Below, one piece after another: positions 32,341 through 45,385 of a DNA stretch of 64,000 bases. The notes under the pieces were generated by a model. The model did not search any database. It saw only the letters and a program-made list of their open reading frames with translations, and was not told where the DNA came from. The stretch is taken from assembly GCF_003667315.2 (NCBI RefSeq), contig NZ_RCTZ02000007.1, positions 62,001 to 126,000 of the forward strand, given 5' to 3'. Both the position numbers and the translations under genes were made by a program. This stretch comes from Tropicibacter alexandrii (GTDB taxonomy: Bacteria; Pseudomonadota; Alphaproteobacteria; Rhodobacterales; Rhodobacteraceae). Numbering within the stretch: position 1 is the stretch's first letter; each line of letters begins with the position of its first letter.

Positions 32341-32372
32341 CAGGTAGGATGGGTGATCACCCATCCTACTTG
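32341..32372. repeat. repeat family 3, perfect 26-bp palindrome between atpD and atpC
   Basis: Arms GTAGGATGGGTGA/TCACCCATCCTAC form a perfect palindrome at 32344-32369. It extends to 32 bases with one G-T wobble at the first added pair. A second copy with the same 11-base arms and a CTAA loop lies at 41539-41564. There is no T-tract, so it is an operon-internal hairpin rather than a classic terminator. Confidence 0.85.
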
Positions 32373-38000: not shown

Positions 38001-39308
38001 TCACGCGGCGTAGACGCGGGTGCCCGCGACCCATGTGCCCAGCACCTTGCCCTGCAAACGGGCATTGTCGAAGGGCGTGTTCTTGGATTTCGAGCGCAGC
38101 TTGAAGCGGTCGAGGATGATCGGCTTGTCCGCGTCGAACAGCACCAGATCGGCAGGCGCGCCCGCCGCCAGACGACCGCAGGGCAGGCCCAGACGCTTTG
38201 CAGGGTTCAGGGACAGCGCGCGGAACAGGGTCGGCAGATCCAACTCGCCCGAATGATACAGGCGCAGCAGCACCGGCAGCATCGTCTCCAGCCCGACAGC
38301 GCCGGACGCCGCCTCCTCGAAGGGCAGGCGTTTGCTTTCCTCATCCTGCGGCGTGTGGAAGCTGCCAATGATGTCGATCAGCCCACTGCGCACGGCCTCG
38401 ACGATTTCAAGACGGTCCTCCTCGGCGCGCAGGGGCGGTTTGACCTTGAAGAAGGTGCGGTAGTCGGCCACGTCCATCTCGTTCAGCGTCAGGTGATGCA
38501 TCGAGGTGCCCGCGGTGACGTCGAACCCGTTCTTCTTGGCGCGCACCAGCGCGGGCAGGGCGCGGGCGGTGGTGATCTGGTCGGCGTGGTAGCGGACGCC
38601 GGTCATCTCGACGAGCGCGATGTCGCGGTCCAGCCCCATGCGCTCGGCCATCGCCGAGACGGCGGGCAGGCCACGCAGGCTTGCGAATTTGCCGCTGGTC
38701 GCCGCCGCGCCGCGCGACAGGCCGGGGTCTTGCGGGTGGCCGATGACCAGCGCGCCAAGGCTGCGGGCATAGGTCATGGCGCGGGACAGCACCTTGGTAT
38801 CGCGGACCACGTGGTCGCAATCGGTGAAGGCGACGGCCCCCGCATCCAGCAGAAAGCCGATCTCGGTCATCTCGCGCCCCTCGCGGCCCTTGGTCAGGGC
38901 GGCCATGTGCAGGACGTTCACGGTCGCATCCTCTGCGGCGCGGCGGCGGATGAAGTCGAGCCCCTCGGGGGTGTCGATGGCGGTGGTGGTGTCGGGCCGG
39001 GTGACGATGGTGGTCACCCCCCCCGCAGCCGCCGCACGCCCGGCGGTGGCATAGGATTCCTTGTGCCGTTCGCCGGGTTCGCCGACCTTGACACCGATAT
39101 CGACGATGCCGGGCGCAAGGCATTTGCCTTTGCAATCGACCACCTCGACCTGCCCGGCGTTGACCTTTGCCAACTTTTCGCCCTTCGGATCAGTGCCTTG
39201 GGTAAAGATTTCCTTGATCACGCCGCCCGAGATCAGCACGGCCCCAAGGTCGTCAGAGCCGGTTTCGGGATCGATCAGGCGGGCGTTGGAAAGCAGGGTA
39301 TCGGTCAT
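38001..39308 (-). CDS. pyrC: dihydroorotase
   Basis: 435 residues. It closes carbamoyl-aspartate to dihydroorotate in de novo pyrimidine synthesis. GIVDIGVKVGEPGERHKESYATAGRAAAAGGVTT corresponds to the metal-binding strand 1 region, but the usual HxH pair (DxHVHxRxPG) reads DIGVKVGEPG, so the first two metal-ligand histidines are absent. This is the pattern of the inactive PyrC-like (PyrX/PyrC-prime) partner that binds aspartate transcarbamoylase in some bacteria. Catalytic activity is therefore doubtful and a structural role with PyrB two genes upstream is likely. Confidence 0.85.
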   Translation of the reverse strand: MTDTLLSNARLIDPETGSDDLGAVLISGGVIKEIFTQGTDPKGEKLAKVNAGQVEVVDCKGKCLAPGIVDIGVKVGEPGERHKESYATAGRAAAAGGVTTIVTRPDTTTAIDTPEGLDFIRRRAAEDATVNVLHMAALTKGREGREMTEIGFLLDAGAVAFTDCDHVVRDTKVLSRAMTYARSLGALVIGHPQDPGLSRGAAATSGKFASLRGLPAVSAMAERMGLDRDIALVEMTGVRYHADQITTARALPALVRAKKNGFDVTAGTSMHHLTLNEMDVADYRTFFKVKPPLRAEEDRLEIVEAVRSGLIDIIGSFHTPQDEESKRLPFEEAASGAVGLETMLPVLLRLYHSGELDLPTLFRALSLNPAKRLGLPCGRLAAGAPADLVLFDADKPIILDRFKLRSKSKNTPFDNARLQGKVLGTWVAGTRVYAA

Positions 39309-39391
39309 GGTGGTCCGGTCAGGTACGGGGTTTTTCCCCTCTTAGGGCAATTCAAGGAACGGGGGAACCGCTGTTCGGTGAGGTCTGGGGG

Positions 39392-39486
39392 CAAGGCCCT
39401 TCGAAGGGCCTTGGATCAAGCGCTTTGCAAAGCGCTTGTCACGCGTCTTCGAAGACGCGTCCCTCAAGGCGCTTCGAAGCGCCTTG
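39392..39486. repeat. cluster A: four tandem 22-bp TTCGAA-type palindromes
   Basis: Units at 39392-39413, 39417-39438, 39440-39461 and 39465-39486. Left halves are CAAGGCCC, CAAGCGCT, CACGCGTC and CAAGGCGC, each followed by TTCGAA (TTGCAA in the second unit) and the reverse complement of the left half. Units 1, 2 and 4 are perfect over 22 bases and unit 3 over 20. Gaps are 3, 1 and 3 bases. Unit 4 forms the last codons of the small membrane-protein gene on the minus strand. Confidence 0.9.
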
Positions 39487-39859
39487 CCCGCGCAGCTTCG
39501 ATCGTGGCGATCGTGGCTTGCGGGTCGGGCTGGAACTTGATCAGGTACTTGTCCCCGGCCTTGGTGATGATCTGCACCGCCGAGCCGATGGCGCGCAGTT
39601 TCGCGATCTGGTCCAGCGGCACGACGCGACCGGCGGGGCCGTGCAACGCGTCGCCGACAATGTCCCATTCATGTGCCAGTTCCTCGTCCATCAAGTACCA
39701 GCCGCGCACCGCGACGGCGGCCAGTCCGCCAATCGCACCGGTCCAGACATGGGGGCTGTCGATGATCCACAGGATCAGCATGCCCGCTCCCATGGCGAGC
39801 GCGGCCATGGTGGCGTGTGTGCGCAGATACGTGGCGCGATCGGCGCGGAAAGACGTCAT
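39464..39859 (-). CDS. small membrane protein of the pyr operon, unknown function
   Basis: 131 residues. Two hydrophobic segments at about 16-34 and 38-52 are followed by a soluble, PH-like domain (WDIVGDALHGPAGRVVPLDQIAKLRAIGSAVQIITKAGDKYLIKF). I do not recognise a named family. It sits between the tail-anchored protein and pyrC, all minus strand, so it is probably co-transcribed with pyrimidine genes. Its final residues RRFEAP are encoded by the last palindrome of cluster A, so the C-terminus was probably altered by acquisition of the repeat. Confidence 0.75.
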   Translation of the reverse strand: MTSFRADRATYLRTHATMAALAMGAGMLILWIIDSPHVWTGAIGGLAAVAVRGWYLMDEELAHEWDIVGDALHGPAGRVVPLDQIAKLRAIGSAVQIITKAGDKYLIKFQPDPQATIATIEAARARRFEAP

Positions 39860-45231: not shown

Positions 45232-45385
45232 CAACTGCCTTCGAAGGCAGTTGCAAATCCATTCGAATGGATTTGGCCCCCAGTCTCAAAGGGGCGCGCG
45301 GCCTCGCCAACAGAGCCTGACGATCGCCGCGCAGCGCCCCACAAATTCCTTCGAAGGAATTTGCAAGCCCGTTCGAACGGGCTTC
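45232..45385. repeat. cluster B: two abutting pairs of 22-bp TTCGAA palindromes flanking a larger stem
   Basis: Units at 45232-45253, 45254-45275, 45342-45363 and 45364-45385. Left halves are CAACTGCC, CAAATCCA, CAAATTCC and CAAGCCCG, each followed by TTCGAA and the complementary right half. The first three are perfect over 22 bases and the last over 20. Between the pairs lies GGGGCGCGCGGC (45291-45302), able to pair with GCCGCG-CAG-CGCCCC (45326-45340). The whole sits between the adaptor and pump genes of one operon, 25 bases before the pump ATG. Confidence 0.9.

What the first reader, a model, noticed from the sequence alone, without database searches (positions are those of the whole stretch)
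39392..39486. Four tandem self-complementary 22-mers with variable arms in the pyr operon
Seen directly: four consecutive units CAA-n5-TTCGAA-n5-TTG (one with TTGCAA centre), each a perfect palindrome over 20-22 bases although the arms differ between units. A random perfect 22-bp palindrome has a chance of about 4^-11 per position, or about 0.015 expected in 64 kb; six occur in two clusters. Conserved length, centre and ends with freely varying but self-complementary arms imply selection or a copying mechanism acting on the fold, not the sequence. I know of no named element of this form. It could be an RNA-processing or attenuation site, a protein-binding array, or a mobile hairpin family.
Basis: seen in the sequence. 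Interest (0 to 1): 0.78.

Follow-up and report, generated by a model that had tools for sequence, protein, structure and literature searches.

The report
Hairpin arrays behind Rhodobacteraceae stop codons
Many bacteria related to Rhodobacter carry tiny DNA elements, each a row of two or four hairpins placed just after the end of a gene, whose letters change as long as every hairpin still folds; this looks like an undescribed family of repeats that may mark or protect the ends of messages.

Summary
The 95-bp array at 39392-39486 is one of about 64 copies of a four-hairpin element in this genome (128 model matches, nearly symmetric between strands). The array at 45232-45384 is a two-hairpin relative, present twice. 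The genome has 148 CAAN5TTCGAAN5TTG sites against 0 for the reversed pattern; of 55 sites read, 52 have perfectly self-complementary arms.

The design occurs patchily across Rhodobacteraceae. Type A has four hairpins (pitch 25-23-25), type B two. Hairpins within an array did not share arms. Arrays rarely lie between divergent genes (7 of 155) and mostly start 0-14 nt after a stop codon (86 of 148). At eight orthologous sites stems differ by 18 compensatory double changes and 1 single change. Relatives show array-free sites.

No Rfam family matches; the head and Y1 transposase of classical REPs are missing. Best reading: a REP-like repeat family defined by fold, working at mRNA 3' ends as exonuclease barrier or terminator. 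Function and spreading mechanism are inferred, not shown; DNA-level rivals (cruciform, templated copying) remain open.

The parts
39392..39413 (.). type A array, outer hairpin (CAAGGCCC-TTCGAA-GGGCCTTG)
   Evidence: perfect 22-bp palindrome
39417..39438 (.). type A array, inner hairpin with TTGCAA centre
   Evidence: perfect 22-bp palindrome
39441..39460 (.). type A array, inner hairpin (ACGCGTC-TTCGAA-GACGCGT), no CAA/TTG ends
   Evidence: perfect 20-bp palindrome
39465..39486 (.). type A array, outer hairpin (CAAGGCGC-TTCGAA-GCGCCTTG); together with the next base it supplies the TGA stop of the upstream 131-aa ORF
   Evidence: ORF 39464-39859 (-)
39387..39491 (.). whole type A element with its 5-nt flanks (G-rich left and C-rich right in the family)
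   Evidence: flank bias in 33 arrays; the flanks do not covary
45232..45275 (.). type B pair 1, two abutting 22-bp palindromes
   Evidence: RNA fold z -4.0
45342..45384 (.). type B pair 2, 22- and 20-bp palindromes, 26 nt before the RND-pump start codon; the same-genus genome G198 has a B pair at this site
39464..39859 (-). upstream 131-aa ORF, no Pfam match; ends inside the array
38001..39308 (-). downstream gene, amidohydrolase, taken as pyrC (dihydroorotase) from its place
   Evidence: PF01979
40520..41470 (-). aspartate/ornithine carbamoyltransferase family, taken as pyrB
   Evidence: PF02729 and PF00185

Best explanation
The array is one copy of a Rhodobacteraceae repeat family made of tandem, mutually non-identical perfect hairpins (type A, four; type B, two) that sits directly behind stop codons. 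Shown: the family, its hairpin-level constraint, its placement, and its presence or absence at the same site in relatives. Inferred: it works at the mRNA 3' end, as a barrier to 3'-5' exonucleases and in places as a terminator substitute between convergent genes, with type B acting mostly between genes of an operon; it spreads as a non-autonomous, REP-like element by machinery that I did not identify.
For: Placement, one double-fetched place dropped and all 112 named loci used: 86 of 148 arrays start 0-14 nt from a stop; 107 of 148 within 25 nt against 77.0 +- 4.3 expected for random placement in the same gap; divergent gaps 7 of 155 against 130 of 503 background gaps of at least 20 nt, Fisher P 3.5e-10. 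Local hairpins on 32 arrays 98.4% paired, covariation score 0.471 against 0.106 in shuffles. The alternative outer-with-outer pairing is broken: columns 15/98 and 24/89 pair in 1 of 63 cells. Hairpins of one array never shared arms (outer 0 of 29 against 6.5 expected, inner 0 of 29 against 4.7, in G000 and G025; B 0 of 92, one place counted twice, against 4.5), as expected if each must fold on itself. Window element: -70.7 kcal/mol as RNA, z -7.8. At one orthologous type A site G198 has a U-tract terminator found by the scan; at a second I see by eye a GC-rich stem with a T-run and a long loop, which the scan does not report. Convergent gaps with type A have a separate U-tract terminator in 1 of 19 against 11 of 36 control gaps (P 0.04, a subgroup picked afterwards). 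RNA structures protecting operon segments from 3'-5' exonucleases are established in E. coli (PMC5927463, passages).
Against: No RNA data. Stem mismatches in sense orientation are as often A.C (9) as G.U (8), others 11, whereas RNA selection should favour G.U. Inner centres are palindromic in 59 of 66, which a hairpin loop does not need. No U-tract terminator in the array. All array-bearing convergent gaps together are not depleted of separate terminators (7 of 43 against 11 of 36, P 0.18), nor are tandem ones (5 of 82 against 15 of 222), nor any class when the array is not masked. The RNA minimum-energy fold of the window copy pairs the two outer units with each other. Of five type A sites of G000 sought in G198 only one is a short bare spacer; one lies at a synteny break and one (pyr) differs by about 70 further bases.
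Confidence: 0.48

Rival explanations
1. DNA-level element: the perfect palindromes matter as cruciform or single-stranded DNA hairpins recognised by an unknown enzyme, or are kept perfect by hairpin-templated copying during replication. The 3' location is where they do least harm.
For: Mismatch types are strand-symmetric (8 G.U, 9 A.C). Inner centres alternate GC and CG and are palindromic in 59 of 66. Orthologous stems changed 18 times on both sides, once on one side and once otherwise, with flanks 71-87% identical, as if both arms change in one step. The model hits both strands almost equally well.
Against: Non-palindromic centres occur in 7 of 66 inner hairpins. The enrichment close to stops within the same gap is not explained by a DNA role alone. 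Mismatch counts are small, and my unit detector favours good stems.
Confidence: 0.27
2. Selfish REP-like repeats without host function, tolerated only in 3' flanks.
For: Copy number differs greatly within the genus (128 model matches in G000, 2 in G198). Patchy across genera. Array-free orthologous sites. The same hairpin orders recur within G000 and within G025 (my reading).
Against: Eight type B sites are kept at the same place between genomes whose flanks differ by 13-29%, with stems rebuilt. No Y1 transposase in G000; other transposase families were not tested.
Confidence: 0.2
3. Chance palindromes or coding constraint.
For: One hairpin overlaps the end of the 131-aa ORF. My caller put 6 of 161 arrays inside an ORF; in L170 and L178 the array is read through as the last 23-24 codons of a long ORF.
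Against: 148 sites against 0 control. The other 155 of 161 arrays lie in gaps, and the six lie within 25 codons of an end of the called ORF, none in mid-gene.
Confidence: 0.01

Closest known systems
REP / REPIN / BIME elements with RAYT transposases
   Same: Many short extragenic palindromes per genome, composite arrays, copy number differing between relatives; REPs too can supply stop codons (PMC3733652, passage) and often lie 1-20 nt behind an ORF (PMC12306157, passages).
   Different: No GT(A/G)G head (14 of 140 arrays against 20.6 expected), no Y1 transposase in G000 or in eight of the nine richest genomes, centre mostly self-complementary instead of interrupted, arms differ from unit to unit, fixed two- or four-hairpin design.
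Intercistronic decay-barrier stem-loops (malE-malF, Rhodobacter capsulatus puf; PMC5927463 passages)
   Same: Stem-loops between genes of an operon that hold back 3'-5' decay; type B sits in the same place.
   Different: Those are described at single loci; this is a dispersed family with strict architecture. No decay data here.
Intrinsic (U-tract) terminators
   Same: Strong hairpin behind the stop codon; one G198 site carries one where G000 carries the array, a second by eye.
   Different: No terminator-like site in the window array region.

Membership tests
REP (RAYT-type) | GT(A/G)G head next to the palindrome | tested here: not met
   14 of 140 arrays against 20.6 expected from shuffled flanks
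REP (RAYT-type) | cognate Y1 (RAYT/IS200-like) transposase in the genome | tested here: not met
   PF01797: none in G000; in 18 of 198 family genomes, and of the nine richest only in G126 (with the counts)
REP (RAYT-type) | high copy, extragenic, palindromic | tested here: met
REP (RAYT-type) | palindrome with non-complementary middle | tested here: not met
   outer centres CG in 66 of 66 (search biased to these); inner palindromic in 59 of 66
intrinsic terminator | stem followed by U-tract | tested here: not met
   0 found in 39250-39600
intrinsic terminator | ends transcription | not testable with these tools
   needs RNA 3'-end data
known RNA family (Rfam 15) | match above gathering score | tested here: not met
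   0 in the window; best over the array E 0.37, 18.7 bits against 50
decay-barrier hairpin | stem-loop directly 3' of a gene, inside an operon or at its end | tested here: met
decay-barrier hairpin | stabilises upstream RNA | not testable with these tools
   needs RNA half-lives

The most novel reading that the evidence does not exclude
A repeat family whose identity is its fold and not its sequence: an unidentified process copies or rewrites both arms of a hairpin in one templated step, so that arms drift between genomes while each hairpin stays perfect and different from its neighbours. The cell uses these arrays as interchangeable bidirectional 3'-end modules.
Probability: 0.25. Interest if true: 0.85.

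Novelty: new variant of a known kind. Interest (0 to 1): 0.62.

Why it matters
If right, a large and ecologically important bacterial family uses an undescribed repeat at mRNA 3' ends. It also offers a natural record of how perfect palindromes evolve: stems at orthologous sites changed on both sides with almost no intermediates, which makes selection against templated correction directly testable. Rfam 15 has no family that matches it.

Tried and rejected
RAYT mobilisation: rejected as a general agent, since eight of the nine richest genomes lack Y1_Tnp. Phage or plasmid carriage: 5 stretches in the viral collection, not read further, and one weak plasmid hit. Outer G5/C5 closing stem: compositional bias only, no covariation. 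Outer hairpin pairing with outer hairpin, the RNA MFE of the window copy: disfavoured by conserved mismatches. Autonomous parent: the one near-identical duplicated copy (L017/L032) carries what I read by eye as a CoA-transferase operon, not a transposase. General replacement of canonical terminators: not supported, with weak support for type A between convergent genes only. A CCGG-ended variant: perfect in some genomes (8 sites in G191), but many single hits have non-complementary arms.

Limits: genes were called with a codon-usage caller of my own, which misread at least the gene right of the window array, L117 and some starts. My first array detector lost overlapping units and was replaced. 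One search made 112 loci, of which its table showed 80; unit, arm, flank and terminator-gap counts used those 80 only and counted one place twice (L074 = L149); redid the placement counts without the duplicate and with all 112. The chance hits L153 and L157 were dropped before the counts. Of 42 type A arrays, the 33 with four detected units gave the unit statistics and 32 were aligned (L127, from the same genome as L109 and of reversed order, left out). Loci were fetched through TTCGAA patterns, so centre statistics are fair only for inner type A units, and units whose centre is not TTNNAA were missed. Orthologous pairs need both members to carry the pattern. Odds: after the terminator scan missed one of the two sites that I read by eye, I lowered the best explanation from 0.50 to 0.48.

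Full report
What is there. One search confirms four perfect palindromes of 22, 22, 20 and 22 bp at 39392-39486 and four more at 45232-45384. The window belongs to a 5.04-Mb genome (G000). In it CAAN5TTCGAAN5TTG occurs 148 times and its reversed control 0 times. Without any filter for complementarity, 52 of 55 such sites in the fetched G000 loci have all five arm bases complementary, as do 33 of 34 in genome G025 and 136 of 152 in the 80 named loci.

Architecture. Type A has four hairpins with centre spacing 24-25, 22-24 and 24-25 in 33 arrays, about 95 bp. Outer hairpins have the centre CG in 66 of 66; inner ones GC 33, CG 25 and other 8 of 66. Type B has two hairpins, abutting or 1-2 nt apart, mostly with AT-richer arms. 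The same order of hairpins recurs within a genome: in G025 most often AGCCGC-AGCGGT-ACGCGT-AGGCCC, read in either direction; G000 shows two orders, of which the window copy follows one (my reading). A covariance model of type A hits G000 128 times (both strands, so about 64 copies; only 150 candidates were scored), G025 109, G142 91, G002 69, G035 68, G062 45, G126 39, G191 20, G072 15, G121 11, G111 7, the same-genus G198 2, and G104 and G099 0.

Constraint on the fold. On 32 aligned type A arrays the local hairpins are paired in 98.4% of cells, with changes on both sides in 20 of 32 pairs, 181 double-change cells (52 in shuffles) and covariation score 0.471 against 0.106; sliding partners by one to three columns collapses the pairing. 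Detection favours good stems, so the unfiltered counts are the fairer proof. Pairing outer with outer leaves two positions unpaired almost always (1 of 63 cells). Within an array, arms were never identical.

Where it sits. After removing one place fetched twice (L074 and L149), and with all 112 named loci, 170 arrays were found: 98 between tandem, 50 between convergent and 7 between divergent genes, 6 called inside an ORF and 9 without a gene on one side. The window array is a miscall among the 7 (its neighbours are tandem). The six inside cases lie within 25 codons of an end of the called ORF; L170 and L178 look like true read-through at the C terminus. Background gaps of at least 20 nt in the same loci are divergent in 130 of 503. 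With the 80 listed loci the figures are 4 of 132 divergent and 75 of 128 at 0-14 nt. The distance to the stop codon peaks at 0-4 nt (32 of 129), 5-9 (27) and 10-14 (16) (before removing the duplicate).

Presence, absence and stem change. G198 lacks the array at the pyrC site, has a type B pair between pyrB and the next gene where G000 has none, and has a type B pair at the RND-pump site. Of four further type A sites of G000, one is a short bare spacer in G198, one has a U-tract terminator, one has by eye a stem with T-run and a long loop (not reported by the scan), and one lies at a synteny break. For type B, genome G191 (100% identical to Rhodobacter calidifons locus L108) has TGA-6 nt-array-15 nt-ATG between what I read by eye as an SDR gene and an aminotransferase gene, while G667 has TGA-22 nt-ATG: the difference is the 44-bp array; direction (gain or loss) is not settled. 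At eight orthologous type B sites (flanks 71-87% identical) 108 of 128 stem positions are unchanged, 18 changed on both sides with pairing kept, 1 changed on one side and 1 otherwise.

Distribution. 59 of 198 family genomes (own included) have at least one hit and 31 have two or more (counted from its table). Of the 28 with a single hit, the listing shows the sequence for 7, all with non-complementary arms, so single hits look like chance. Outside the family the paired pattern was found in none of the sampled genomes; of the 384 other genomes in that class sample four belong to the family and also have none. In the species collection the scan stopped at its limit with 112 stretches: 104 carry Rhodobacterales names (assignment of genera to the order is from my own knowledge). 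Of the other eight, L153 and L157 and L167 and L186 are chance matches without paired arms; L088 (Pseudomonadota MAG), L170 (Alphaproteobacteria MAG) and L187 (MAG named Exiguobacterium profundum, 68% GC) hold true pairs; L149 (named Enemella evansiae) is identical over 3,201 bp to G002, which the collection places in this family and whose contig has the same length.

Mechanism. The place behind stops, the avoidance of divergent gaps, the mutually different strong hairpins and the terminator-for-array exchange point to work at mRNA 3' ends. Against a purely RNA view stand the equal numbers of G.U and A.C mismatches in sense orientation (8 and 9), the palindromic centres and the near absence of one-sided changes. 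I hold RNA 3'-end function at 0.48 and DNA-level maintenance at 0.27.

Comparison. It works like a REP/BIME or a decay-barrier hairpin, but fails three tested marks of RAYT-type REPs: head, transposase and interrupted centre. Paper searches (listings) showed nothing on this element in the open-licence library. From PMC12306157, PMC3733652, PMC5927463 and PMC2817692 I read passages only.

Noticed in passing
window 32344-32369: Perfect 26-bp palindrome GTAGGATGGGTGATCACCCATCCTAC shortly after the end of a called gene; looks like a GTAG-type REP with heads at both ends, in a genome without a Y1_Tnp match. One more copy was found among the fetched loci (L049, 3188-3213).
   Followed up: partly
L187 (named Exiguobacterium profundum, 68% GC) may be another such case.
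   Followed up: partly
L142, L123, L091, L125 and G191: A third unit class with CCGG ends around the same core (e.g. CCGGAAAATTCGAATTTTCCGG), in pairs or added to type B pairs.
   Followed up: partly
L017 and L032: Duplicated operon, by eye a CoA transferase (96.5% identical over 1,450 bp), whose copy ends about 10 bp beyond the type A array; stems identical, a linker already changed.
   Followed up: partly
L048 and L141: Apparent orthologous site with a type A array in G000 and a type B pair in an uncultured Rhodobacter (flanks 69-70% identical).
   Followed up: no
L170 1664-1708 and L178 4822-4866: Type B array read through as the last 23-24 codons of a 947- or 956-residue ORF, giving a basic tail.
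   Followed up: no
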